Assembly (NCBI RefSeq): GCF_014762705.1
Contig: NZ_JABURL010000009.1
Span: 1 to 44,593 of the forward strand
Reading direction: 5' to 3'
Length of the DNA stretch: 44,593 bases
Source of the DNA: Cyclobacterium sp.
GTDB lineage: Bacteria; Bacteroidota; Bacteroidia; Cytophagales; Cyclobacteriaceae
Part shown: positions 31,869 through 44,396 of the stretch, piece after piece
How the letters are laid out: each line of letters begins with the position of its first letter
Position numbering within the stretch: position 1 is the first letter of the stretch
Notes under the pieces: model-generated
Seen by the model: the letters and a program-made list of their open reading frames with translations, nothing else
Told to the model about the DNA's origin: nothing
Databases searched by the model: none
Made by a program: the position numbers and the translations under genes

Positions 31869-31925
31869 AATAGTGTCCGGGCATTACCAGGTGCGAAGCA
31901 TTTGATCTCCGGACACTATTTTTTT
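31869..31925 (+). terminator. Terminator after sialate O-acetylesterase
   Basis: Perfect 12-base stem, AATAGTGTCCGG (31869-31880) with CCGGACACTATT (31909-31920), with a 28-base loop and a run of seven T. It lies about 20 bases after the esterase stop, between convergent genes; its T run reaches the stop codon of the aminotransferase gene. Confidence 0.85.
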
Positions 31926-33021
31926 ACCAAAATTTTATCTTTTCCACTGCAGCTACCAGGCGGTGAATGTCTTCCGGAAATACATGGCCTATATGGCCAA
32001 TTCTGAAGGTTGCTGCCTGAGATACCTTGCCAGGATAGATCACAAACCCCTCTGATTTTAGCAACTGATAAAGTTTTTCGAAAGAAAAGGCAGTGCTTTG
32101 AGGCTCATGAAAGGCGGTAATGATGGGAGACTGGTCTTTGGTTTCTAAAAAAGGCTTTATGCCGATTTTTTCCATTCCGCTCACCAGGGTTTGGTGATTT
32201 GCTGCGTACCGTGCATGCCTGGCGGATATGCCACCCTCATTTTCCAATTCAGTAAGTGCTTGTAAAAATGCCCTCACAGTATGCGTAGGGGAGGTAAACC
32301 GCCATTTGCCAGGATCTTTTTCCATGGTTTCCCATTGATCGTATAAATCAAGAGAGTGGCTTCTCGAATTTCCTTTGCATTCCTGAAGGGTACTTTTTTT
32401 GGCAATAACAAATCCGAAGCCCGGAACTCCCTGTATGCATTTATTGGCACTGCTGATCAAAAAATCAATTTCCGGCCACTTGACATCCAATGGAATCCCT
32501 CCAAAGCTACTCATGGCATCCAGTATGAATACCTTTCCCCATCGGGCCGCCAATGCTGCAATGGGGGCGTAATTATTGAGCATGCCGGTAGTGGTTTCAC
32601 AATGGACCATGCCAATATGTGTGATGTCGGGATGGGTTTGTAAGGTTTTTTCTACAGTTTCGGGATCTGCTTGCTTATTCTCCGGAAATTCGACAACTAC
32701 CGTTGCTGCCTGCATTGATGTAGCTATCCTGGCCATCCTTTGGCCATATGCTCCGTTGGAAAGCACCAGGATTTTGCTTTTTGGCCTGAGGCTTGTCCAC
32801 AAGACTGCCTCCACGGAGAAGGTACCGCTTCCTTGCATCAAAACGTTGGTATAGGCTTCACCGCCATGGCTTAAATCCAGTATGTATTCCCGGATTTTTT
32901 GAACGATGGACTTATAGTCCGTATCCCAGGTGCACCAGTCCCTGTCCATGGCGGCACGGACAGTTTTGCTGGTACTTAATGGTCCAGGGGTTAGCAGCAG
33001 GTAGGGGTTTTCTGGTATCAT
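31924..33021 (-). CDS. phnW: 2-aminoethylphosphonate-pyruvate aminotransferase
   Basis: A 365-residue PLP-dependent class V aminotransferase. The opening block YLLLTPGPLSTSKTVRAAM and the following RDWCTWDTDY are highly characteristic of PhnW. Others are MVHCETTTGMLN, DAMSSFGGIPLDV (Asp168 pairs with the PLP nitrogen) and SSANKCIQGVPG (Lys194 forms the Schiff base). It would convert 2-aminoethylphosphonate and pyruvate to phosphonoacetaldehyde and alanine, the first step of phosphonate catabolism. I start it at 33021, giving the family length; the frame is open 19 codons further, into the divergent promoter region. No phnX, phnA or phnY is in the window, so the next enzyme must be elsewhere. 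Confidence 0.88.
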   Translation of the reverse strand: MIPENPYLLLTPGPLSTSKTVRAAMDRDWCTWDTDYKSIVQKIREYILDLSHGGEAYTNVLMQGSGTFSVEAVLWTSLRPKSKILVLSNGAYGQRMARIATSMQAATVVVEFPENKQADPETVEKTLQTHPDITHIGMVHCETTTGMLNNYAPIAALAARWGKVFILDAMSSFGGIPLDVKWPEIDFLISSANKCIQGVPGFGFVIAKKSTLQECKGNSRSHSLDLYDQWETMEKDPGKWRFTSPTHTVRAFLQALTELENEGGISARHARYAANHQTLVSGMEKIGIKPFLETKDQSPIITAFHEPQSTAFSFEKLYQLLKSEGFVIYPGKVSQAATFRIGHIGHVFPEDIHRLVAAVEKIKFW

Positions 33022-33133
33022 GGGAATGGTAATAACAGGATGAATATTGGGATTAAATATAGGGTTTCCCCCAAACAATTTCAGGGGTCTGCCTGGAATT
33101 CCTTATATTTATTCTATAACCTTTAAAAATATC

Positions 33134-33879: not shown

Positions 33880-34812
33880 TTATACTTCAAATAGGCTGAT
33901 GCTGAAATAGGATTTGCTATCGGTAAAATGATGGTCCGCGCTGAAACCTGCTTTAAACCTGATCTGGTCCAGGTCTTCCAAACTGTATTTTTGTGATACC
34001 TCCATGTGAATGGGTTCAAATGCATGAAAGCCAATGGTCTGACCAGCCACCTGCACTTTTTGCGTAATGTTACTGATCAGGAAACTTTTCGTGGTCCCAC
34101 TCAGGGGATCATAACTGGCATAATGGTCAAACCCGGCTGTGTCAAAATCAGCACCTAATTCCCGGTTGATTCTTTCCAAAAGGTTGATATTAAACTTCTT
34201 GGTTATACCTGCGGGATCATCATAGGCGGAGAGTATGGTTTTGGGATGTTTTTTTAGATCCACTCCCAGCATGAAGTAGTCTCCCTTTGCCATAAAGGAC
34301 TTTACAAATTGAATAAAGTCCAGGGCTTTTTCCCCTTCAAAATTTCCAATATTGCTACCAAGAAAAAGAATGACTTTTGGTTTATCCCTCTCCTTGATGC
34401 TTTTGAGGGTGTCAAAGTAATCTCCGGCAATGGGTTTTACAGCTAATTCCGGAAGCTCTTGGCGCATGAATTGTTCATTTACCGAAAGGATATCTGGGGA
34501 AATATCCAGTGGGATATAAGTAATGTTTTTTTTCTCGCGGAGTAAGGCATCCAGAAAAAGTGCCGTTTTTGTTCCGTCACCTGCTCCCAGTTCCACCACA
34601 TCGTAGCCTTTGCTGGGAAGTTCTCTGATAATATCTTTTGCACGTAGCCTTAAAATCTCTGTTTCACAGCCGGGCAGATAATATTCCGGCATGTGCATGA
34701 TCTCCTGAAAGATGGCAGAACCCTTTTCATCATAAAAGTATTTTGAAAATAACCTTTTAGGGTTCGATTGTAAACCATTGAGGATGTCTTTTTCAAAGTT
34801 GGTTTGTGTCAT
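33880..34812 (-). CDS. egtD: L-histidine N-alpha-methyltransferase EgtD
   Basis: A 310-residue SAM-dependent enzyme that trimethylates histidine to hercynine, the first step of ergothioneine biosynthesis. Family blocks: PKRLFSKYFYDEKGSAIFQEI (residues about 18-38; only its core YFYDEKGS is needed to recognise it), MPEYYLPGCE, SAM motif I VELGAGDGTKT (73-83), and FLGSNIGNF with Asn154. IHMEVSQKYS contains the E-x-S pair (Glu271, Ser273) that holds the histidine substrate in characterised EgtD. It overlaps egtB by 4 bases, so the two are translated together. Confidence 0.95.
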   Translation of the reverse strand: MTQTNFEKDILNGLQSNPKRLFSKYFYDEKGSAIFQEIMHMPEYYLPGCETEILRLRAKDIIRELPSKGYDVVELGAGDGTKTALFLDALLREKKNITYIPLDISPDILSVNEQFMRQELPELAVKPIAGDYFDTLKSIKERDKPKVILFLGSNIGNFEGEKALDFIQFVKSFMAKGDYFMLGVDLKKHPKTILSAYDDPAGITKKFNINLLERINRELGADFDTAGFDHYASYDPLSGTTKSFLISNITQKVQVAGQTIGFHAFEPIHMEVSQKYSLEDLDQIRFKAGFSADHHFTDSKSYFSISLFEV

Positions 34813-35999
34813 TTTGTTTTAGCAAGTCTGATTCCTGAAAAAATCCATCTGGACGGTGGTGCAAAAAAGTTGCGGTAGGTAGCCCGGCTATGTCCTTGCG
34901 GAGTAGCTACAGATGCCCCTCGCAAAACATGCTGATTGACCATAAATTTGCCATTGTATTCTCCCAGTGCTCCTGCTGCTTTTTGAAATCCCGGGTAGGG
35001 AAGGTAGGCACTGCCGGTCCATTCCCAAAGTTGCCCCCAGGTAAAATGTTGGGATGCTGCCTCCCATTCAAATTCAGTAGGTAGGCGCATGCCTTTCCAT
35101 TCCGCAAAGGCATAGGCTTCGTAAAAACTCAGGTGTTGAACCGGTAAGTTTGGGTCTATGGGTTCTAAGCCCCTAAAGGTATATTGTCGCCATTCCCCTC
35201 CTTTTTGGTGCCAGTAAAGGGGAGCTTTGATTTGTTGATTTTGGATGAAATCCCATCCATCAGCATGCCACAAGTTAAAGTCCTGGTAGGCACCGGCACT
35301 GATAAATTCCATGTATGCTGCATTGCTTACCAGTTTGTTAGAAATCTGGTAGGACTCAAGGAAAACCCTATGTCTGGCATTTTCATTATCATAAGAAAAA
35401 CCATTTCCGGAAAACCCGATAGCATAAAGCCCTTCCTCCATGGAAATCCATCGCTGCTCCTGGCTTTCCTGCAGCAGATTGAAAGTATCCCCATATACCG
35501 GAAATGTCGGCTGGTGGCCCAGGATGTATTTGATATCATACACCAGCAACTCCTGGTGCTGTTGTTCATGATTGATTCCCAATTCAAGGATATCCAATGC
35601 TTCCTTTTCAGCCTCGCCTGAGCCAATAAAATCCAGGACTTCCTTTGTTACATAGTCCCTGTAGGCCATTACATCACGTACCGGTGGCCGGCTCATCAAA
35701 CCTCTGTTAGGACGCAACACCCTATCTCCTGCGTTGTTGTAATAACTGTTAAACAAATAGGCAAAGTCGGAGTCATAAACGGTATATCCCTGCTTAAAGG
35801 TACTGAGCAGAAATTGTTCAAAAAACCAGTTGCTATGTGCCAAATGCCATTTAGGAGGAGAAACATCCGCCATAGGCTGGGGAACATAATCCTCCAGTTC
35901 GAGGGGAGCACAAATCTTTTCGGTTTGCTCCCTGCAGTTTTTAAATTGATTTAATAGTAATGTTGATTTGGTTTCAGATTGGCTCAATTTCACTGACAT
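34809..35999 (-). CDS. egtB: Ergothioneine sulfoxide synthase EgtB
   Basis: A 396-residue non-haem iron enzyme that couples hercynine and a thiol (gamma-glutamylcysteine or cysteine) with oxygen to a sulfoxide. The N-terminal DinB-like domain supplies iron ligands in PPKWHLAHSNWF (His52/55) and NHEQQHQELL (His144, His148). RPNRGLMSRPPV (96-107) follows the EgtB pattern. The C-terminal formylglycine-generating-enzyme-like domain starts near 190, with MRLPTEFEWEAA and a final GIRLA. It overlaps egtD. EgtA, EgtC and EgtE are not in this window, so the thiol donor and the C-S lyase are open questions. Confidence 0.95.
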   Translation of the reverse strand: MSVKLSQSETKSTLLLNQFKNCREQTEKICAPLELEDYVPQPMADVSPPKWHLAHSNWFFEQFLLSTFKQGYTVYDSDFAYLFNSYYNNAGDRVLRPNRGLMSRPPVRDVMAYRDYVTKEVLDFIGSGEAEKEALDILELGINHEQQHQELLVYDIKYILGHQPTFPVYGDTFNLLQESQEQRWISMEEGLYAIGFSGNGFSYDNENARHRVFLESYQISNKLVSNAAYMEFISAGAYQDFNLWHADGWDFIQNQQIKAPLYWHQKGGEWRQYTFRGLEPIDPNLPVQHLSFYEAYAFAEWKGMRLPTEFEWEAASQHFTWGQLWEWTGSAYLPYPGFQKAAGALGEYNGKFMVNQHVLRGASVATPQGHSRATYRNFFAPPSRWIFSGIRLAKTK

Positions 36000-36119: not shown

Positions 36120-36701
36120 TTATTCATAGAGTTCGACAATCATGTCGATTTCTACGGCAATATTATTGGGTAGAGAGCTCATGCCTATGGCAGCCCTGGC
36201 ATGTTTTCCTTTTTCCCCAAATACTTCTACCATTAAATCCGAAAAGCCGTTGATGACTTGTGAGTGCTGTTTAAAGTCAGGGGCAGCATTGACCATGCCC
36301 TGTGCCCTGATGATGTTTTTTACCCTGTTCAGATCACCGATTTCAGCTTTGAGTGAAGAAAGCAGGGAAATGCCCGTAAAACGTGCGGCTTCAATCCCTT
36401 GTTCCAGTTCCAGCTCGGTGCCGAGCTTGCCTATGACCTGTGTACCATCCGGTCTATCCGGTCCATGTCCTGCAAGGTAGACCACATTGCCAAGGGTTTT
36501 GGCTTTCAGGTAATTGGCAGTTGGGGCATTAGGCTGGATTAAGGTTATACCCAGGTCCTTGATCCTTTGTTCAGCATCTATGCCATCATTAGGCACTTCT
36601 TCGGTGGTTTCCTGATTTTCTAGGGAAGCATTTGTTGCTTTTTCACCACAGGAAATGAGACAAAAAGCGGACAATAGGAAAATTAAGGATAGCTTTTTCA
36701 T
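36120..36701 (-). CDS. RidA-family lipoprotein
   Basis: A 193-residue exported member of the RidA/YjgF family. The leader ends in CLISC (Cys18), a good lipobox, followed by an acidic spacer (about 20-45). The RidA domain covers about 50-192: NVVYLAGHGPDRPDG, SLKAEIGDLNRVKNIIRAQG, and the active-site region HARAAIGMSSLPNNIAVEIDM. The last includes Arg169 and Glu184, matching the Arg/Glu pair that hydrolyses enamine/imine intermediates in RidA. Export is unusual, since canonical RidA is cytosolic. It lies 184 bases downstream of the SelA-like gene on the same strand and 120 bases before egtB, and could serve either. A non-catalytic binding role is possible. Confidence 0.88.
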   Translation of the reverse strand: MKKLSLIFLLSAFCLISCGEKATNASLENQETTEEVPNDGIDAEQRIKDLGITLIQPNAPTANYLKAKTLGNVVYLAGHGPDRPDGTQVIGKLGTELELEQGIEAARFTGISLLSSLKAEIGDLNRVKNIIRAQGMVNAAPDFKQHSQVINGFSDLMVEVFGEKGKHARAAIGMSSLPNNIAVEIDMIVELYE

Positions 36702-36726
36702 GTGTTTATAATTTATTTTTAATAGG

Positions 36727-36751
36727 CCACCCCGATTAGTCGGGGCAGGCT
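36727..36751. repeat. GC-rich hairpin between SelA-like and RidA genes
   Basis: CCCCGA / TCGGGG (36730-36735 and 36740-36745) with a short loop, flanked by imperfectly matching GCC/GGC. The motif CCCGATTAGTCGGGG resembles a small intergenic repeat found in many Bacteroidota. No T run follows on the minus strand, so it is a weak terminator at best. Confidence 0.5.
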
Positions 36752-36885
36752 ATGGAATCTTTGACGATTAAAATAATCATTGCCCTGTGTGTTTAATGAT
36801 GATTTTAATCGTGTCGATTTCATGTTTTTTTATTTAATAAAGGTTTTGGTAACCGGTATGGGTTTTTATCTGCTTAAAAGGTTTT

Positions 36886-38505
36886 TCAGGTGGCCAGCGG
36901 AGGACCAGAGGGCACCATTATTTTTTCTTTTCTTGGGCTGCCTTCCGGTCTTTTGGCAGTAAATTCTGCAGTGAGGTATTCTCCCATAAATACTTCTCCT
37001 TTCAATTGGCTGCCTTCCATTTTGCCGGTAAACATAAAAGTGACTGAATCTCCCGGTTTACGGAAATTGCTGCGCATTTTAACTGTATTTCCTTCGATTG
37101 TTCCATACAGGTCCTGGTCCGCAAAATCACTCATGTGTGTACCGTTCAGCCAGTTCCCATCCTGCTCCAGAATCCACTTGTGGGTGCTTTTACTACTGAA
37201 AAAAGACATTTCCACCTCCCACTTCCCACTAAGATTATCTGCAGGAGCAGCCATAGCGTTATCGGTGGGTTTTCTTTTGGCGGATAGGGTTTTGTGGATT
37301 CTGTCTGCAACTACCCCGGCTTCTCCAGGCTGCATCTGGTTGGGACTTATGGTAATGGATGTCAGCCCGTCCTGATTGCGGCTGCCAACGGCAATCCTGG
37401 GCGCAGTTCTTCCGAAAAGCTCAGCCACTTCCTCACCACTAATATGCAATTGCTCCGGGTCCCAAAGGATCTGAAGCATGGGGGCACGGTTATTCAATCC
37501 ACTGGGCTGGTTGATCTGGTGGGTCACTCCCTTGATTTTTGTGGCCCTGTCAGCAATGCTGTTGAGCCATTCCATCCAGGTATCCCATTCCTTGTCATGG
37601 TCCCGGGTAGTCCAGGCTTCCACTGCTGCCAACATGCCAAGCATTTCCTCTTTACCCACTTTATTATCCCTTCCGGGACCATGGTGCGGAGAACTGGCTT
37701 GCCAGGCGGATAGCATCAGGTCTTTTCTGCCCAGTAGCAATCCGGCACATTGCGGACCGCAAATGGCCTTACCGCCTGAATAAGCCACCATGGTGGCTCC
37801 CCTTTCAAAATGCACACAAGGAATGGTCAGGTTTTCCGCTGCGGCATCCATGAGGATGGGGACATTACTACTTTTTGCGATACGGGCAATGTTTTCCAAG
37901 GATAAGGGCTGACCTGTATCTGCACCCCTGCCGGAAATCAGGTAAATCATTGCCGTTTTAGAGTTGATGGCTTTTTCCAGTTCTTCGGGACTATTAACCT
38001 CCACTATGGTAACGCCAATATTCCTTACAGCATGGTCGTATACATTTCTGGAATGCCTGGGAATGATAACCTCGGTTTTGTCAAATCCGCTGAGGTCCGG
38101 GATTTTTAGTAATTTTTCCGGGTTGCCGCCGGTCACACAAGCAGCAGTGGCATGTTTCATAGCTGCGGCACAACCTGCCGTTATGATACCAAAATCGGCT
38201 TTGGTGATTTCAGCAAGCCTTTCTCCAATGGCAAAGGCCAGTTCATCATATTGGACAAAGTTTTTTGCTGCTGCAGCCATTGCCTGATGTACTTCAGGCC
38301 TTTCAATGGACCCGCCAATAATGGTAAAGGTGCCTCTGCAATTGATGATAGGTTCTACTCCCAATGAACGGTAAATATTTTCATCAAGTGCCAAAGGACC
38401 ACTGGGCTTTTTATTTCTTTGACTTCCCATAATTGGTGACATGCTCATCAGGCTGCCCCCCATGGGTAGGATTGCCAGGTTTTTGATCATTTCTCTTCTG
38501 TCCAT
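36886..38505 (-). CDS. SelA-like PLP-dependent enzyme with Tat-like leader and C-terminal beta domain
   Basis: 539 residues. The catalytic part (about 45-410) belongs to the SelA-like, fold-type I PLP family that also includes D-glucosaminate-6-phosphate ammonia-lyase. LGVEPIINCRGTFTIIGG opens it, TAGCAAAMKHATAACV follows, then PILMDAAAE (Asp220), and SGGKAICGPQ with Lys246 as the expected Schiff-base lysine. Residues 1-27 (MDRREMIKNLAILPMGG...) look like a twin-arginine leader, so a folded, cofactor-loaded enzyme could be exported. Residues about 425-520 form an added beta-rich domain (LSGKWEVEMSFFS ... GSQLKGEVFMGEYLTAEF) of lipocalin-like character. I start at 38505, two codons before RR and 1 base after the preceding stop codon. 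The likely reaction is ammonia elimination from an amino acid or amino sugar acid. Confidence 0.85.
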   Translation of the reverse strand: MDRREMIKNLAILPMGGSLMSMSPIMGSQRNKKPSGPLALDENIYRSLGVEPIINCRGTFTIIGGSIERPEVHQAMAAAAKNFVQYDELAFAIGERLAEITKADFGIITAGCAAAMKHATAACVTGGNPEKLLKIPDLSGFDKTEVIIPRHSRNVYDHAVRNIGVTIVEVNSPEELEKAINSKTAMIYLISGRGADTGQPLSLENIARIAKSSNVPILMDAAAENLTIPCVHFERGATMVAYSGGKAICGPQCAGLLLGRKDLMLSAWQASSPHHGPGRDNKVGKEEMLGMLAAVEAWTTRDHDKEWDTWMEWLNSIADRATKIKGVTHQINQPSGLNNRAPMLQILWDPEQLHISGEEVAELFGRTAPRIAVGSRNQDGLTSITISPNQMQPGEAGVVADRIHKTLSAKRKPTDNAMAAPADNLSGKWEVEMSFFSSKSTHKWILEQDGNWLNGTHMSDFADQDLYGTIEGNTVKMRSNFRKPGDSVTFMFTGKMEGSQLKGEVFMGEYLTAEFTAKRPEGSPRKEKIMVPSGPPLAT

Positions 38506-38506
38506 A

Positions 38507-39730
38507 TCAATAAGTATATTTTTTTGCAGCCAATCCATTCAAGTCATAGACGATTTTCCCGCCTTTCATGGTAAGCTCCGTTTCCAATTTATATTTTCCT
38601 TCAATTTTATTACCTCCTGCATCAATAAAACCAAATTCCCCTTCATGTAATTTCAATAAGGTAAGGTCTGCCACAGCTCCTTCACTAAGGTGGCCCAGGT
38701 CAGTTCGTTTTATGGCTTGCGCAGCCTGCCAGGATGCCCTTTCGATCACATCATTTACTTCCATTCCAATATTAATAAATTTAGACATGACATTCAGCAT
38801 GTTTTTCATTCCGGAGTTCATGCTGAATCGGTGAAGGTCTGTACCGAAGCTGTGTGGGGTTAAACCCTGTCGTACGGCAGGTATGGCCTGACTGAACCAA
38901 AATCCGGCCCCTCCATGTCCCACATCGAATAATATGCCCCTATCATAAGCTGCTCTGACAAAACTGCGTAGCATGCCCTGCTCATCCACAATGGGCATGC
39001 GTTCTTCAATTTCTTCAAAGCTGTGCGTGAGGATATCCCCGGGTCTCATTTTTTCCAATTGTTGGGCCAGGGTGTATTGGGGCAGGTGGCATTCCACCAG
39101 CAAAGGCTTGTTAGCCATCTCAGTCGCCTGGAGTGCATTTTCAAAGGGTGTCCATTCCGGACCAGTATAATGACCGATTTTGATTCCCACCAGAATGTCA
39201 GGATACTGTAGCAGGGTTTCAAAGGCTTTTTCAGGATCCATGTCCAATAGGTTTTCCTGTTCTGGATTTCCGCTCATTCCGGTACCGGCGATATTTAAAA
39301 ATGCCAGTACCCTGGTTTGGGAAGCATCAATGACATTTTTTTTGAAAGTTTCAAAATTTCTCCAGCCGGAGGTTCCGGCATCTACCATGGTAGTAATACC
39401 GGATCGAAAGGAGAAATCATCCGGTGATACGCTGGAAAACCCATCTGCAAAGGTTCTTGCCTGGCTGCCTACGAATAGATGCGTGTGGAGGTCAATCAAT
39501 CCGGGGCTGAGGATCAAGCCAGAGGCATCAATCACTTTTTTTGCATCTTCCGAAGCAATTTGCGGAGCAACCCTGGCAATTTTTCCAGCCAAAACACCTA
39601 CATCCATGCTGTCACGTATGCCATTTTTTGCATCGATCAGATAGGCTCCTTTGATCAATATGTCCAGGTCCTGAGCCCGCAGCTGCAGGCAAAGGCTGAT
39701 TAGAAGAAAAAGAAGCGGCCATCTTTTCAT
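38507..39730 (-). CDS. Secreted amidohydrolase (deacetylase/dihydroorotase-like), copy B
   Basis: A 407-residue metal-dependent amidohydrolase with signal peptide (MKRWPLLFLLISLCLQLRAQ). Metal and catalytic positions: LHTHLF (His82, His84), VGIKIGHY (Lys184, probable carbamylated bridge), VECHLP (His215), ILTHSF (His236) and GTDLHRF (Asp298). This is the pattern of the deacetylase-type amidohydrolase family (COG3964), often a neighbour of SelA-like genes. The start at 39730 gives the signal peptide directly; the frame upstream overlaps the previous gene. It starts 10 bases after copy A and its stop is 1 base from the SelA-like start, so all three are surely one operon. Confidence 0.9.
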   Translation of the reverse strand: MKRWPLLFLLISLCLQLRAQDLDILIKGAYLIDAKNGIRDSMDVGVLAGKIARVAPQIASEDAKKVIDASGLILSPGLIDLHTHLFVGSQARTFADGFSSVSPDDFSFRSGITTMVDAGTSGWRNFETFKKNVIDASQTRVLAFLNIAGTGMSGNPEQENLLDMDPEKAFETLLQYPDILVGIKIGHYTGPEWTPFENALQATEMANKPLLVECHLPQYTLAQQLEKMRPGDILTHSFEEIEERMPIVDEQGMLRSFVRAAYDRGILFDVGHGGAGFWFSQAIPAVRQGLTPHSFGTDLHRFSMNSGMKNMLNVMSKFINIGMEVNDVIERASWQAAQAIKRTDLGHLSEGAVADLTLLKLHEGEFGFIDAGGNKIEGKYKLETELTMKGGKIVYDLNGLAAKKYTY

Positions 39731-39740
39731 GTTGATGTAT

Positions 39741-41024
39741 CTAGCGTTTGCCCAGTTCTGTTTCCCAATAAGGTACACTGAGCCCGTTCAGGTCCCACAC
39801 AATTCTCCCGGCCCTGATGGTAAGTTCCGCTTCGAGTTTTTTATCTCCGTCAATTTTGGTCCTTCGGATATCCTGAAAGCCAAAACTTCCTTCTCTGAGG
39901 CTGAATACTGCAATGTCTGCTTCCGAACCCGGGTCCAGGTTACCCAGGTCTTCCCTGTGAATTACCTGTGCAGGGTTCCAGGTTGCTCTCAGGATGACAT
40001 CCTCCAGGCTGAGTCCCATGTTCATGAATTTGGAAAGTAGATTGGCCATATCCTTAAACCCTCCGTTCATGCTGTCTTTATGTAAGTCCGAACTGATCAC
40101 ATCCGGAAGAAAGCCCTGCTGAATAGCCGGAATTGCTTGTCGAAAGGAAAAGGCGCCACCTCCATGTCCCACATCAAAACGAATTCCTTTCTGCTGCGCC
40201 GGCAAAATAAAGGGTTTAAGCTTCAGGTCTTCATCCACAATCGTTTCCCTGTTATTGGGTCCATAAGAGAAGGTATGGGTAAAAATATCGCCAGGCCTGA
40301 GATGTTCCATAAAAAGCGACTCAATGGAGTTGGGAGGCTGGTGTTCCCCAAAATCCACCATTACGGGGACATTGGCGAGGGTGCCCGCCTCTACAGCCAG
40401 GTCTACCTGCGTAAAATCGCCCCAGTAATGGGCGGATTTTATTCCTACAAGGATTTCAGGAAACAGGCGGGTAATCATATGAGCGGTCATGCTGGGGTTC
40501 ATGTCCATGACATTCTGTTCTTCAAATCTCCCGTACATGCCGGTACCCACAATGTTAAGTAGTGCCAAAATTCTCGTTTGGGAACGGTCTATGGTTTGTT
40601 TTTTGAATTCCCGGAAATTTTTCCAGCCAGAAGATCCTGCATCTACCACGGTAGTGACTCCTGAACGGAAGGTAAAACCATCCGGTGGCAGGCTGGTGAG
40701 GCCATTGGCAATGTATGCCTCCGTATCGGCACCATGAAACACATGCACGTGCATGTCCAATAGACCCGGGGTTACGATAAAACCGCTGAGGTCAATGGTT
40801 TTTTTTGCGCTACTTGACGGAATGTCCTTTTCTACCTTCAGTATTGTTTTGCCGGAAATGGCAATGTCCATGATGCCATTGATTTCGTTTTTTGGGTCCA
40901 GCACCCTGCCTCCTTTTAAAAGCAGGTCAATTTCCTGTGCCTGGGCTGTTAGGGTTGATAACAAAGCAGTACAAATCAAAAGCAATTGCAGGCACAACAA
41001 TTTGGTCAGATGTAAAACAGACAT
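39741..41024 (-). CDS. Secreted amidohydrolase (deacetylase/dihydroorotase-like), copy A
   Basis: A 427-residue paralogue of the next gene, with signal peptide (cut after AQAQ, about residue 30). Metal and catalytic positions are conserved: DMHVHVF (His92, His94), VGIKSAHY (Lys196), FGEHQP (His228), IFTHTF (His250) and SSDLHKD (Asp313). The two copies share long blocks such as GGGAFSFRQAIPA versus GGAGFWFSQAIPA and LVGIK-xx-HY, but differ around the third His. They may therefore act on different substrates. First gene of the amidohydrolase-SelA operon, with the promoter in the divergent gap before the Nramp-like gene. Confidence 0.9.
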   Translation of the reverse strand: MSVLHLTKLLCLQLLLICTALLSTLTAQAQEIDLLLKGGRVLDPKNEINGIMDIAISGKTILKVEKDIPSSSAKKTIDLSGFIVTPGLLDMHVHVFHGADTEAYIANGLTSLPPDGFTFRSGVTTVVDAGSSGWKNFREFKKQTIDRSQTRILALLNIVGTGMYGRFEEQNVMDMNPSMTAHMITRLFPEILVGIKSAHYWGDFTQVDLAVEAGTLANVPVMVDFGEHQPPNSIESLFMEHLRPGDIFTHTFSYGPNNRETIVDEDLKLKPFILPAQQKGIRFDVGHGGGAFSFRQAIPAIQQGFLPDVISSDLHKDSMNGGFKDMANLLSKFMNMGLSLEDVILRATWNPAQVIHREDLGNLDPGSEADIAVFSLREGSFGFQDIRRTKIDGDKKLEAELTIRAGRIVWDLNGLSVPYWETELGKR

Positions 41025-41369
41025 GGGCAGAGATTAATGTGTTTAGGTTAAATTAGCGTAAAGTAAAGCCAAAACCTGCGGATAATCCGCTGCATCTTTT
41101 GAGCTATATCAGCTTTTCAAAAGGCCTCATATAGCCAATTTGATTTTTGTGCCATGACTTATCTCAAAATATAAGGTCATTCAAGTACCGACCAGGCACA
41201 GGTCAAATTAAGCAGGGTTTTCACCGGGTATTTACGGAAATATTGCAAAAAAAATTGTTTTTACAAAGCCCTCTTTTATTAAAAGTCCGGTAAACTACAG
41301 ATTTCCTTTTTATTGAGGAGAAAAATATTCAAATTAACGACTTGCTAAATCATATTCTTCCGTTAAACT
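41025..41369. promoter_or_regulatory. Divergent promoter region, amidohydrolase operon / Nramp-like gene
   Basis: 345 bases without a gene, between two genes facing away from each other, so it must contain both promoters. GCGGATAATCCGC at 41078-41090 is a small palindrome (5-base arms) about 55 bases upstream of the first amidohydrolase and could be a regulator site. A further AT-rich part lies close to the transporter start. No riboswitch-like structure was recognised. Confidence 0.5.
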
Positions 41370-42650
41370 ATGAACAAAGCGAATAAAACTCCGAATACTA
41401 ACTTATTGCAAAAAATATGGCTTTGGATGTTGGGCATCGGTCCGGGGATTTTTTGTATTGGCTATACGATAGGAACCGGAAGTGTAACTTCTATGGCCAA
41501 GGCCGGGAGCGAATTCGGTATGCAGTTGCTTTGGGTGCTGGTGCTGAGTTGCGTTTTTTCTTGGGTGCTAATGGAAGCTTATGGTAGGTATGCCGTTGTT
41601 ACTGGTCAAACTTCCATCTACAGCTTTAAGACTAAATTGAAAGCAGGTAAAATTATTTCTTACCTGATAGTGGGCGGAATCATATTGGCGCAATGGAATT
41701 CCTTGTCGGGTATATTGGGGTTAAGTGCCAATGCCATTTACGAAATGGCAGTATTGTTTTTTCCGGATTTGTCGGGAAACTCCTACTGGCCGGTTCTGGG
41801 AATTGCGGTTGTATTGATTTTGGTGATGTATTCCTTCTTATGGGTTGGTCAATACTCATTTTTTGAAAAAGTGTTGATCGTTTTTGTGACCATTATGGGT
41901 ATTGCCTTTATCATTTCGATGTTTGTGGTACTGCCTGATCCGGCGCGGATGGTTAAAGGGCTTGTCCCCTCCGTGCCAGATGTGCCAGGGGGGAGGTTAT
42001 TGGTGGCAGCTTTTGTAGGAACGACAATGGCAGCCCCAACCTTTGTGGTGCGGCCCCTGCTGATGAAGGGCAAGGGATGGGGGCCTGCCCATACACGGGA
42101 ACAATCAAATGATGCGCTGACCGGCGCAATTTTAATGCTGGTAATTAATCTTTCGATCATGGCGGCGGCAACAGGGGCACTTTATGCAGATGGCAAAACC
42201 ATAGAAAAAGTAATGGACATGGTTTATATCCTGGAGCCGGTGGCCGGCAAATTTGCAGTTGCGCTATTCATGACGGGAGCACTGAGTGCCGGATTATCCT
42301 CTGTTTTCCCAATACTAATGGTGGCCCCGCTACTGGTGGCGGATTATAAAGAAGGGGAGCTAGACATCCGGTCCACCCGTTTTAAGGTTTTGACGGGCGT
42401 GGCTTGTCTGGTCGGTTTGACAGTTCCTGCTTTAGGTGCCAATCCCATATTTGCTCAAATATTGACCCAGGTGGCTGCTGTTTTCGTTTTACCTTTGGTT
42501 ATCGCCTGTATACTATACCTGGTAAATCAAAAAGCGTTGATGGGTGACCACAAGGCGGGGTTCTGGTTGAATATTGGGTTAATTACCGCCTTTATATTTG
42601 CCTGTATCATCTCCTACACAGGGGCTCTGGCCTTAATAGAGTTAGTTTGA
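41370..42650 (+). CDS. Nramp-fold transporter lacking canonical metal-binding motifs
   Basis: A 426-residue inner-membrane protein with about 11-12 hydrophobic segments and the Nramp/SLC11 layout. TM1 begins GIGPGIFCIGYTIGTGS (residues 22-38): the usual Nramp DPGN is replaced by T-I-G-T-G. In TM6 the usual MPH is replaced, as it reads GTTMAAPTFVVRPLL (217-231). The main Mn/Fe ligands are thus missing, so transport of manganese is doubtful; magnesium, another ion or an organic solute are options. It is divergent from the amidohydrolase/SelA operon, hinting that it may carry a substrate or product of that pathway. Its 3' end overlaps the convergent dehydrogenase gene by 9 bases. Confidence 0.82.
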   Translation: MNKANKTPNTNLLQKIWLWMLGIGPGIFCIGYTIGTGSVTSMAKAGSEFGMQLLWVLVLSCVFSWVLMEAYGRYAVVTGQTSIYSFKTKLKAGKIISYLIVGGIILAQWNSLSGILGLSANAIYEMAVLFFPDLSGNSYWPVLGIAVVLILVMYSFLWVGQYSFFEKVLIVFVTIMGIAFIISMFVVLPDPARMVKGLVPSVPDVPGGRLLVAAFVGTTMAAPTFVVRPLLMKGKGWGPAHTREQSNDALTGAILMLVINLSIMAAATGALYADGKTIEKVMDMVYILEPVAGKFAVALFMTGALSAGLSSVFPILMVAPLLVADYKEGELDIRSTRFKVLTGVACLVGLTVPALGANPIFAQILTQVAAVFVLPLVIACILYLVNQKALMGDHKAGFWLNIGLITAFIFACIISYTGALALIELV

Positions 42651-44396
42651 AATTTCAGCCCTGATATTTGCTACATCTTCTTTAGAAACAGCCGAAGCGT
42701 TATTGTCGAAATTCTGCCTTATGAAGGTCAATACTTCTGAAACTTGATCATCGCTTAAAAATTGATGGGCCGGCATTACATTGTCATACCATTCTCCGTT
42801 GACTTCTATTTCTCCCTCCAGGCCTTCCAGTACCAATTGGATCAGCCGTTTTTTGCTTCCTGTAACCCAGTCCGTTTGCCTAAGACCGGGTATCCTTCCT
42901 GTTGCTCCGTTGCCATCTCTTTGGTGACAGGGGGAGCAATAGGTATTGTATACCTTTTTACCTTCAGGAAGTTGACCTTTATCCAGGTTGTCCTCTTCGG
43001 GATGAGGGTTGCGGATATTGGCTACTAATTTTTGTGCATCCATTTTTTCTAGTTCAGCCTTTCCAAATGAAGCCTTTACTCCTGTAAATAAAATTCGCCA
43101 GATTTTGCCTACTCTTGAATCAGAGACATACAATGAACCATCAGGTCCTTGCGCCAGACCCATAGGCCTGAATGCAGCATCATTGGTATTGACAATTAGT
43201 TCTTTTCCCGCAAAACCATTCGCAAAAACTTCCCAATCACCTGCTGCTTGCCCGTTTTGAAAGGGTACAAAGGCGACAAAATAACCTGATTGTGGGTATG
43301 GAGACCGATTGGTAGAACCATGAAAGGCGATAAAAGCGCCGTTTTTATACCGGTCGGGAAATTGATCTCCCGTATAAAATAACAAGTCATTGGGAGCCCA
43401 GTGGCCCGGGAAGCCCATGACCGGATCGTCCATACCAGCACACCGGCCTACCATTTCACCATCCCCTCCGTACTCAGGGGCAAGGACCTTTTTCTTTTTG
43501 ATCTGGTCATAGTAACAATAGGGCCAGCCATAGTCTGCTCCCTGGCTTACTTTGATAAACTCTTCTGAAGGCAAAACAGCACTTTCCCAGGGAGAGAAGG
43601 TTTCAGGGTAAAGCAAATGCAGGTTATCTCTGCCATGCATCACCACATAAATGTGATTGTCTACCGGGTTGTAGTCCATGGCCACAACACTTCGGATCCC
43701 AGTGGCAAACAATTCACCATCTTTCTGGGTCATTCCCATTTTATCCTTAGGAAATTTCCAGACTCCTCCATGTTCGATCAGTTCGGGACAGGGATCCAGT
43801 CCCTGGGATCCGGGAATGCCACCGGGTTTGTTTTCCAAATCCTGGCAGGCGTTTGAGGGACTTCCAAATGGGACATATAAATTCCCCTCCCGATCAAAAG
43901 ATACGGGTTTGGTGATGTGCCAGTGAATACCGTGTTCATGATCATCGGTAAGCACTACTTCCATGGGCGTGTCAGGTATAAGTTGGCCTTGGTTCAGTTT
44001 GTTTCTGTAGACCACCCTCGCAGAACTGTAATACAGGTAGCCATCATGGATTCGCATTCCGTTTGCCAGACTGCCTTCGTCTTCATAATCCCCAAAATAC
44101 CTGATTAAATCTGCTTTACCATCACCAGTGGTATCCCTTAGGGCCACATTGCTGCCCATACCTTCCGCATATCTCAATTTTACATAGATGTCACCATTTT
44201 CGTTGACCGCCATATGCCTGCCCTTACCAATACTATCTATTACTATCAGGGCTCCGAAACCCTCGGGTAAAGAAAGGCCTCCATTTTCCGGATCGGGATG
44301 AGGTAAAGAATCTCTGCTTTCACAGGAATTAAAAAAAATAAATAAAACGGCTGAAAGGACGAAACTGCAGATGGACGGTAAAGAGATGCGATTCAT
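42642..44396 (-). CDS. Sugar-dehydrogenase-like beta-propeller fused to cytochrome c, lipoprotein
   Basis: 584 residues with a lipoprotein leader ending in FFNSC (Cys25). Residues about 40-440 form a beta-propeller of the L-sorbosone/soluble glucose dehydrogenase type: GFGALIVIDSIGKGRHMAVNENGDIYV, HWHITKPVSFDREGNLYVPFG, GIRSVVAMDYNPVDN, GADYGWPYCYYD and GPDGSLYVSDSRVGKIWRI, each quoted only in part of its block. The C-terminal domain (about 465-570) is a class I cytochrome c: YCSPCHQRDGNG (haem at about residue 486-490) and NVMPAHQFLSDDQVSEV with the axial Met. It would oxidise an aldose or alcohol in the periplasm, passing electrons intramolecularly to the haem. PQQ use is plausible but not proven. 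It is convergent with the Nramp-like gene. Confidence 0.87.
   Translation of the reverse strand: MNRISLPSICSFVLSAVLFIFFNSCESRDSLPHPDPENGGLSLPEGFGALIVIDSIGKGRHMAVNENGDIYVKLRYAEGMGSNVALRDTTGDGKADLIRYFGDYEDEGSLANGMRIHDGYLYYSSARVVYRNKLNQGQLIPDTPMEVVLTDDHEHGIHWHITKPVSFDREGNLYVPFGSPSNACQDLENKPGGIPGSQGLDPCPELIEHGGVWKFPKDKMGMTQKDGELFATGIRSVVAMDYNPVDNHIYVVMHGRDNLHLLYPETFSPWESAVLPSEEFIKVSQGADYGWPYCYYDQIKKKKVLAPEYGGDGEMVGRCAGMDDPVMGFPGHWAPNDLLFYTGDQFPDRYKNGAFIAFHGSTNRSPYPQSGYFVAFVPFQNGQAAGDWEVFANGFAGKELIVNTNDAAFRPMGLAQGPDGSLYVSDSRVGKIWRILFTGVKASFGKAELEKMDAQKLVANIRNPHPEEDNLDKGQLPEGKKVYNTYCSPCHQRDGNGATGRIPGLRQTDWVTGSKKRLIQLVLEGLEGEIEVNGEWYDNVMPAHQFLSDDQVSEVLTFIRQNFDNNASAVSKEDVANIRAEISN

What the first reader, a model, noticed from the sequence alone, without database searches (positions are those of the whole stretch)
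36120..41024. Candidate extracytoplasmic amide-to-keto-acid pathway: two amidohydrolases, SelA-like PLP enzyme, RidA
Seen: four genes in a row on one strand, three of them separated by 1 and 10 bases. Each has an export signal: Sec leaders on both amidohydrolases, a Tat-like leader on the SelA-like enzyme, a lipobox on RidA. Known: deacetylase-type amidohydrolases (COG3964) and SelA-like ammonia-lyases are often neighbours, and RidA hydrolyses the enamine/imine that PLP ammonia-lyases release. Inferred: an N-acylated or cyclic amide is opened, the free amine undergoes PLP-dependent ammonia elimination, and RidA clears the product, all outside the cytoplasm. A complete periplasmic route of this kind is not familiar to me.
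Basis: partly seen in the sequence, partly recalled or inferred. Interest (0 to 1): 0.72.

Follow-up and report, generated by a model that had tools for sequence, protein, structure and literature searches.

The report
Exported amino-sugar acid breakdown cluster
A set of exported enzymes in Cyclobacterium and its relatives looks built to strip the acyl group and the ammonia from an oxidised amino sugar outside the cytoplasm and to bring in only the resulting keto-sugar acid, a job described so far inside the cell and with other enzymes.

Summary
The four genes are present as described, each with an export-type leader. The window lies in a Cyclobacterium genome. Neighbourhoods of 80 named relatives of the PLP enzyme (the best 80 of 409) and of 39 short paralogues show that RidA goes with the PLP gene, not with egtB. 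RidA comes in two types, one with Sec or lipoprotein leaders and one with twin-Arg leaders. In the window's own genome the three RidA genes at PLP loci carry leaders and the other three do not.
In Flagellimonas one run adds SusC/SusD, a GH20 hexosaminidase, a lactonase, an RraA-type protein, a bile-acid-type symporter and, without leaders, a KDG-type kinase and KDPG aldolase.
Best reading: an extracytoplasmic, non-phosphorylating route from N-acetylhexosamine to a 2-keto-3-deoxy sugar acid. It resembles the cytoplasmic ong chitin-oxidation pathway but uses a PLP enzyme of another fold and another amidohydrolase branch. Export and linkage are well supported. [quoted passage not shown] No activity was tested.

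The parts
39741..41024 (-).
   Evidence: HxH, Lys, beta6 His and beta8 Asp kept, beta5 His replaced by Asp
38507..39730 (-). AH2, Sec-type leader, paralogue 47% identical to AH1; beta5 His replaced by Glu
36886..38505 (-). Twin-Arg-leader PLP enzyme of the SelA/DgaE kind with a C-terminal extension of about 110 aa; proposed amino-sugar-acid ammonia-lyase
   Evidence: PLP Lys in SGGKxxxGPQ present in 45 of 45 aligned rows
36120..36701 (-). RidA-family lipoprotein (PF14588)
   Evidence: lipobox LISC; linked to PLP genes
42642..44396 (-). GSDH-type beta-propeller dehydrogenase fused to cytochrome c, lipoprotein-like leader; proposed C1 oxidation step
   Evidence: PF07995 and PF00034 above cut-off; GSDH-type genes in 34/80 long-PLP and 27/39 short-PLP loci vs 1/40 controls
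41370..42650 (+). Nramp-like transporter divergent from AH1, without the canonical DPGN motif; proposed organic-acid importer
   Evidence: close relatives in 15/80 named loci, Cyclobacterium, Lunatimonas and kin
41025..41369 (.). Shared divergent intergenic region of AH1 and the Nramp-like gene (promoter region inferred)
   Evidence: no sigma-70-like site scored in it

Best explanation
The cluster encodes the extracytoplasmic part of a non-phosphorylating catabolic route for N-acetylhexosamines or their aldonic acids. Proposed order: (1) a dehydrogenase-cytochrome c oxidises C1 to the lactone; (2) the lactone is opened, in relatives by SMP-30 or PF10282 lactonases; (3) AH1 and/or AH2 remove the N-acyl group; (4) the Tat-exported PLP enzyme eliminates water and ammonia to give 2-keto-3-deoxy-gluconate or -galactonate, and RidA hydrolyses released enamine/imine; (5) the keto acid is imported (SBF, MFS or the Nramp-like carrier) and processed by cytoplasmic KDG kinase and KDPG aldolase. 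Shown: gene order, families, leader sequences, linkage, and the presence of KDG-kinase-like, KDPG aldolase and SBF genes in the same genome. Inferred: every reaction, the substrate, the actual compartment, and which carrier works.
For: Linkage: AH 59/80, RidA 29/80, GSDH 34/80, lactonase 15/80, SBF 13/80, RraA 12/80 named loci vs 0, 0, 1, 0, 0, 0 of 40 controls. Short-PLP loci: AH 32/39, RidA 30/39, GSDH 27/39. Leaders: twin-Arg pattern on 81/83 long PLP (69/83 also pass my hydrophobic rule); signal-like leaders on AH1 61/63, AH2 45/48, window-type RidA 18/20, Tat-type RidA 14/14 (all twin-Arg), SMP30 10/10, RraA 12/12; but 0/3 PfkB-type KDG kinase, 0/4 DGOK, 0/9 KDPG aldolase. The rule passes 186 of 469 control ORFs, 13 of them with twin Arg. 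Own-genome control: of six RidA-family genes, the three at PLP loci carry leaders, the other three do not (read by eye). Logic: L122 (Flagellimonas alvinocaridis) is one co-directional run SusC-SusD-membrane protein-GH20-GSDH/cyt c-SMP30-AH1-PLP-RidA-RraA-DUF4440-SBF-KDG-type kinase-KDPG aldolase. L164 has PLPshort-AH1-DGOK-KDPG-type aldolase-MFS-PLP. A KDG-kinase-like and a KDPG aldolase gene lie near each other on contig C87 of the window's genome. Precedent: OngB, OngC, KdgK and the essential RidA protein OngD take GlcNAc1A to KDG-6-P in Pseudoalteromonas (PMC9537276, passages and section 13).
Against: KDG kinase (7/80) and KDPG aldolase (9/80) linkage is limited to about three lineages; the kinase excess over controls (1/40) is not significant (one-sided Fisher p 0.19; aldolase p 0.02), and 0/39 short-PLP loci have either. 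The PfkB-type kinase of L122 is below the cut-offs of the KDG-kinase models it resembles. In the window no lactonase, GH20 or KDG enzyme is adjacent. SusC is common in controls too (24/80 vs 5/40). DGL residues: of 45 exported rows His at column 162 in 1, at 163 in 3, Arg301 in 2, Arg332 and Arg346 in 0, carboxylate Arg226 in 17. Two of the three rows with a His at 163 (L056, L057) have RidA next to the PLP gene, against a simple rule that RidA makes up for the missing His. AH1/AH2 lack the beta5 His of solved relatives. 21 of 80 named loci (17 of the 58 of at least 17 kb) have no AH nearby, many of them Dyadobacter, though AH relatives exist elsewhere in the 10 of those 21 genomes tested. L163 has a PLP relative without a leader. 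PQQ binding by the dehydrogenase was not tested.
Confidence: 0.5

Rival explanations
1. Extracytoplasmic catabolism of N-acyl-D-amino acids (for example from peptidoglycan or D-amino-acid peptides): AH1/AH2 deacylate, the PLP enzyme eliminates ammonia from beta-hydroxy D-amino acids, RidA clears the enamine, the keto acid is imported.
For: COG3964 enzymes are recalled to deacylate N-acetyl-D-amino acids and alpha-acyloxy acids; [quoted passage not shown] An Arg invariant in the 16 long forms aligned (R370) may bind an alpha-carboxylate (inference).
Against: It does not account for GSDH-cytochrome c, sugar lactonases, GH20, KDG-type kinases or KDPG aldolases in clusters.
Confidence: 0.22
2. The KDG enzymes serve another glycan branch, and the AH/PLP/RidA genes act on a different nitrogen compound such as a cyclic imide, pyroglutamate or a modified nucleoside.
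For: A sub-group (for example L117, L124; L136 in part) has the AH/PLP genes beside an Nramp protein of another type, NIPSNAP and adenosine deaminase genes (Pfam on L067 proteins; order) and genes that I take for PxpA and PxpB from their sequence (recalled, no family search).
Against: Those gene sets are confined to one sub-group (Nramp of that type in 4/80 loci); GSDH and RidA linkage is far wider. No uronate lyase or isomerase was recognised, but only selected neighbours were annotated.
Confidence: 0.15
3. A detoxification or salvage module: exported enzymes remove reactive or inhibitory amino-sugar acids or enamines, not a carbon route.
For: RidA is known for damage control; the DGL authors suggest that C3 protonation may avoid release of a cytotoxic intermediate (PMC9529869, passages), and 42 of 45 exported rows, the window's included, have no His at that column.
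Against: A symporter and KDG-type enzymes sit in the same runs in some relatives; three rows do have the His, two of them with RidA beside them.
Confidence: 0.08

Closest known systems
ong oxidative chitin pathway of Pseudoalteromonas prydzensis (OngA, OngB, OngC, OngD, KdgK)
   Same: Same predicted order: N-deacetylation of the sugar acid, PLP deamination to KDG, RidA partner, KDG kinase; outer-membrane TonB receptors and a beta-hexosaminidase
   Different: OngB and OngC are predicted cytoplasmic; OngB is a subtype V D-aminoacylase-like amidohydrolase and OngC a fold-III PLP enzyme. Here the PLP enzyme is SelA/DgaE-like (fold I, recalled), the amidohydrolases are of NF006689, leaders are on AH, PLP enzyme and RidA, and a dehydrogenase may make the sugar acid
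[quoted passage not shown]
   Same: Nearest solved relative of the PLP enzyme (E 3.9e-36); PLP Lys and, in the window, Arg226 kept
   Different: The window lacks the His163 proton donor and has M and N at phosphate Arg301 and Arg346 (and G at 332, Arg there in the pairwise alignment); below the DgaE model cut-off (153 vs 600 bits); DGL takes its substrate from a cytoplasmic PTS
Atu3266-like amidohydrolases (PDB 2ogj, 8je0; names recalled)
   Same: Nearest solved relatives, barrel motifs kept
   Different: Sec-type leaders, two paralogues together, beta5 metal-ligand His replaced by Asp or Glu
RidA / Rid family (PF14588, PF01042)
   Same: Family match; segment HARAAxG..LP...VEID shared with PDB 3d01
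   Different: Lipoprotein, Sec or twin-Arg leaders; three other RidA-family genes of the same genome have none
Tat-exported PLP enzyme PvdN of Pseudomonas (recalled; listing only)
   Same: A PLP enzyme exported by Tat
   Different: Siderophore maturation, no amidohydrolase or RidA partner (recalled)

Membership tests
ong-type GlcNAc1A pathway (working analogy) | Deacetylase, PLP deaminase, RidA and KDG kinase encoded together | tested here: inconclusive
   Amidohydrolase, PLP and RidA genes together in many loci; KDG-type kinase in 7/80 loci, not in the window
ong-type GlcNAc1A pathway (working analogy) | Homologous OngB (subtype V) and OngC (fold III) | tested here: not met
   AHs belong to NF006689; PLP enzyme aligns to DGL; OngC is fold III. 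OngB/OngC sequences were not compared directly
DgaE/DGL (NF047797, TIGR01437) | Score above the curated cut-off | tested here: not met
   153.3 vs 600 and 159.8 vs 385.3 bits
DgaE/DGL (NF047797, TIGR01437) | PLP Lys, His162/His163, Arg226, Arg301/332/346 | tested here: not met
   Of 45 exported rows: Lys 45, His162 1, His163 3, Arg226 17, Arg301 2, Arg332 0, Arg346 0 (residue roles)
Amidohydrolase family NF006689 | Score above the curated cut-off | tested here: met
   434.6 and 405.7 vs 371
Amidohydrolases of the 2ogj/8je0 kind | Metal ligands HxH, Lys, His (beta5), His (beta6), Asp (beta8); roles recalled | tested here: not met
   beta5 is Asp in 35/35 AH1-type and Glu in 31/31 AH2-type rows; the other five positions kept in all 66
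Rid family | PF14588 above gathering score | tested here: met
   57 vs 35 bits
Rid family | Enamine/imine deaminase activity | not testable with these tools
   needs protein
Nramp metal transporter | DPGN metal-binding motif in TM1 | tested here: not met
   window has IGYTIGTGS where PDB 10ky_A has VGFIDPGNW; the motif's role is recalled
Extracytoplasmic enzyme set | Export-type leaders on AH, PLP enzyme and RidA across relatives | tested here: met
   by a home-made rule with a high background (186/469 control ORFs; twin-Arg 13/469); real localisation untested

The most novel reading that the evidence does not exclude
A complete oxidative, non-phosphorylating N-acetylhexosamine pathway outside the inner membrane of Bacteroidota: oxidation, lactone opening, deacetylation and PLP-dependent ammonia elimination with a dedicated exported RidA, so that ammonia and acetate are released outside and only a nitrogen-free keto-sugar acid is imported.
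Probability: 0.4. Interest if true: 0.82.

Novelty: new variant of a known kind. Interest (0 to 1): 0.7.

Why it matters
PLP ammonia-lyases and their RidA guards are normally thought of as cytoplasmic (recalled). Here both carry export-type leaders across many species, and two different types of RidA, using two export routes, are tied to the same kind of PLP enzyme. If right, this is an amino-sugar route in which nitrogen is left outside the inner membrane. It also makes testable what RidA does in such pathways: OngD is essential for GlcNAc1A use, yet its role is reported as unknown (PMC9537276). Most of the exported PLP enzymes, the window's included, lack the His that protonates the enamine in DGL (42 of 45 rows), which suggests, but does not show, why a RidA partner could be needed. 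Genes that resemble selenocysteine synthase or dihydroorotase would get a physiological context.

Tried and rejected
egtB/egtD as partners of RidA: rejected, because they lie beside it only in the Cyclobacterium loci (9/80 named loci) while RidA stays with the PLP gene where egt is absent.

The Nramp-like protein as a metal importer: disfavoured, the canonical motif is absent; its real substrate is open.

The KDG-enzyme linkage as statistical proof: not claimed. The kinase excess over 40 controls is not significant (p 0.19); the argument rests on order within tight runs in separate lineages and on the absence of leaders on those enzymes. The controls come from five genomes of one family, and three pairs of control regions overlap; the 80 named loci are the best 80 of 409 and are not independent (nine are Cyclobacterium). 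Neighbour labels in the counts are BLAST matches to representatives, of which only the ones named went through Pfam or NCBIfam.

Paper searches (only the top of each listing was shown, for example 15 of 83 papers) listed no description of an exported AH-PLP-RidA set; only these searches of one open-access library support that. Read as passages: PMC9537276 (plus its section 13), PMC12017989, PMC9529869, PMC11653859; the rest were seen as listings.

Promoter-like and terminator-like sites were no more than in shuffles.

Full report
1. The observation. The window contains, on the minus strand, AH1 (39741-41024), AH2 (38507-39730), the PLP enzyme (36886-38505) and RidA (36120-36701), with gaps of 10, 1 and 184 nt. 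AH1 and AH2 score above the NF006689 cut-off. The PLP enzyme matches TIGR01437 and NF047797 below their cut-offs, and RidA matches PF14588. Two neighbours belong to the picture: a divergent Nramp-like gene (41370-42650) and, tail to tail with it, a GSDH-type dehydrogenase fused to cytochrome c (42642-44396). The window is a whole contig of a 6.08-Mb assembly; a PLP homologue 99% identical lies in Cyclobacterium plantarum.

2. Distribution. In a phylum sample, 8 of 395 genomes (the window's included) have a PLP homologue at E up to 1e-20; in a sample of the window's family, 65 of 245. A full-length form with the C-terminal extension and a shorter form of about 400 aa both occur, often in one genome. 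A named scan gave 409 confirmed loci, of which the best 80 were kept and studied; 79 carry Bacteroidota or unspecified bacterial names and one (L163) is a Gemmatimonadetes MAG.

3. Linkage. In the 80 named loci: AH 59, GSDH 34, RidA 29, lactonase 15, SBF symporter 13, RraA 12, KDPG aldolase 9, KDG/KDGal kinase 7, GH20 2. In 40 random 20-kb regions from five related genomes the same counts are 0, 1, 0, 0, 0, 0, 0, 1, 0. SusC is found in 24/80 and in 5/40 controls, SusD in 15/80 and 2/40, so these two say little by count. One-sided Fisher values range from 1e-16 (AH) and 9e-7 (RidA) to 0.02 (aldolase) and 0.19 (kinase); loci are not independent, so these are descriptive. In 39 short-PLP loci: AH 32, RidA 30, GSDH 27, CBM9 14, RraA 8, lactonase 7, SBF 7, KDG kinase and aldolase 0. 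RidA is the immediate same-strand neighbour of a PLP gene in 26/80 and 22/39 loci. egtB/egtD are there in 9/80, the nine Cyclobacterium loci. Against universality: 21 of 80 loci have no AH nearby, 17 of them among the 58 loci of at least 17 kb, and many are Dyadobacter. I tested 10 of those 21 genomes (nine Dyadobacter and the L163 MAG): all 10 have AH relatives elsewhere, and five have one at 65-70% identity to AH1 beside a second AH.

4. Export. By a simple rule (charged start, hydrophobic stretch), signal-like leaders are on AH1 61/63, AH2 45/48, window-type RidA 18/20, Tat-type RidA 14/14 (all twin-Arg), SMP30 10/10, RraA 12/12, GSDH-cytochrome c 31/36 and CBM9 4/8. Long PLP proteins have the twin-Arg pattern in 81/83 and pass the full rule in 69/83; short ones pass in 12/15. 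Exceptions to twin Arg are L155 and L163. Cytoplasmic comparison: PfkB-type KDG kinase 0/3, DGOK 0/4, KDPG aldolase 0/9, EgtD 0/9, EgtB 1/9. The rule is lax: 186 of 469 ORFs of the control regions pass it, 13 with twin Arg, and 47 of 469 show the RR pattern used for PLP. The twin-Arg results stand far above that; the Sec results stand above it less sharply. Short loci agree: RR near the start of 40/41 short PLP and 26/27 Tat-type RidA (RR anywhere in the first 70 residues, control 57/469). In the window's own genome six RidA-family genes exist. The three at PLP loci (window, C53:19481, C53:9612) have leaders; those on C79, C66 and C83 do not (by eye). This is the strongest single argument that RidA works outside with the PLP enzyme.

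5. What the pathway is. In Flagellimonas alvinocaridis (L122) one co-directional run reads SusC, SusD, a membrane protein, GH20, GSDH-cytochrome c, SMP-30, AH1, PLP, RidA (Tat), RraA-like, DUF4440, SBF symporter, PfkB-type kinase, KDPG aldolase, with one gap of 369 nt after SusD and the others under 60 nt; L123 and L127 repeat most of it. The kinase is nearest to KDG-kinase models but below their cut-offs; the aldolase is above its cut-off. In L164 (and, by BLAST, L146, L155, L161) short PLP and AH1 are followed by a 2-keto-3-deoxygalactonokinase (PF05035), a KDPG-type aldolase, an MFS carrier and the long PLP gene. Two further loci (L145, L150) carry an aldolase 37-38% identical to that of L122. 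So kinases of two Pfam families for 2-keto-3-deoxy sugar acids sit in such clusters. The window's genome has a KDG-kinase-like gene and a KDPG aldolase, one small ORF apart, on C87 and an SBF gene beside a Tat-type RidA gene, an SMP-30 gene and SusC/SusD on C53, near the short-PLP locus. From this I infer the route given in the best explanation.

6. Mechanism details. The PLP Lys is present in 45 of 45 exported rows aligned. DGL's His163 column has a His in 3 of 45 and the His162 column in 1; Arg301 in 2, Arg332 and Arg346 in none; the carboxylate Arg226 in 17, the window among them (roles). For the window the pairwise alignment puts an Arg at 332, so that position is uncertain, as is the His loop. 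Loss of phosphate-binding residues fits an unphosphorylated substrate. An Arg invariant in 16 aligned long forms (R370) could take the carboxylate (inference). In DGL, removal of His163 leaves the enzyme active but a transient intermediate accumulates. An enzyme without that His may release more enamine, which could explain the RidA partner; against a simple rule, two of the three rows with the His (L056, L057) also have RidA beside the PLP gene. AH1 and AH2 keep HxH, Lys, the beta6 His and the beta8 Asp in all 66 rows, but the beta5 His of 2ogj and 8je0 is Asp in 35/35 AH1-type and Glu in 31/31 AH2-type rows. Why two paralogues are kept is unknown.

7. Comparison with what is known. The ong pathway of Pseudoalteromonas converts GlcNAc1A to KDG-6-P with OngB, OngC and KdgK and needs the RidA protein OngD; OngB and OngC are predicted cytoplasmic, OngC is fold III, OngB is a D-aminoacylase-like subtype V enzyme. 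The cluster here would work like it, but is not a member: different amidohydrolase branch, different PLP enzyme, exported. I found no description of an exported version in the listings.

8. Verdict. Observation confirmed; export-type leaders and linkage well supported; the amino-sugar-acid substrate is the best of several readings (about one in two); chemistry and localisation untested.

Noticed in passing
window 36702-36885: The 184-nt PLP-RidA spacer folds far better than shuffles (z -5.0) and holds a palindrome found six times exactly in this genome; in most relatives the gap is under 120 nt, so it may be an inserted repeat.
   Followed up: partly
window 41370-42650: Nramp-family protein without the DPGN motif; in other loci (L116, L117, L124, L136) another Nramp-type gene sits beside the PLP gene. 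Possibly Nramp relatives that carry organic acids.
   Followed up: partly
window 36886-38505: The C-terminal ~110 aa of the long PLP form match no Pfam model at E 0.001 but hold invariant residues across 16 long forms.
   Followed up: no
window 38507-41024: beta5 metal-ligand His replaced by Asp (AH1, 35/35 rows) or Glu (AH2, 31/31 rows).
   Followed up: partly
L122:12197-13129 and similar loci: RraA-type proteins (aldolase fold, recalled) with signal-like leaders in 12/80 long and 8/39 short loci; they might cleave the keto acid outside the inner membrane.
   Followed up: no
L163: Gemmatimonadetes MAG with a 62% identical PLP relative that has no leader and no AH or RidA neighbour in 14 kb.
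   Followed up: partly
L116, L117, L121, L124: A sub-group with adenosine deaminase-like and NIPSNAP genes beside the AH/PLP genes.
   Followed up: no
window 31924-33054: 2-aminoethylphosphonate transaminase PhnW, above cut-off.
   Followed up: no
window 33880-35999: egtD and egtB, above cut-off, near RidA only in the Cyclobacterium loci.
   Followed up: yes
L244: Locus of the window's genus with a short PLP gene among several sulfatase-like proteins (read from N-termini only).
   Followed up: no
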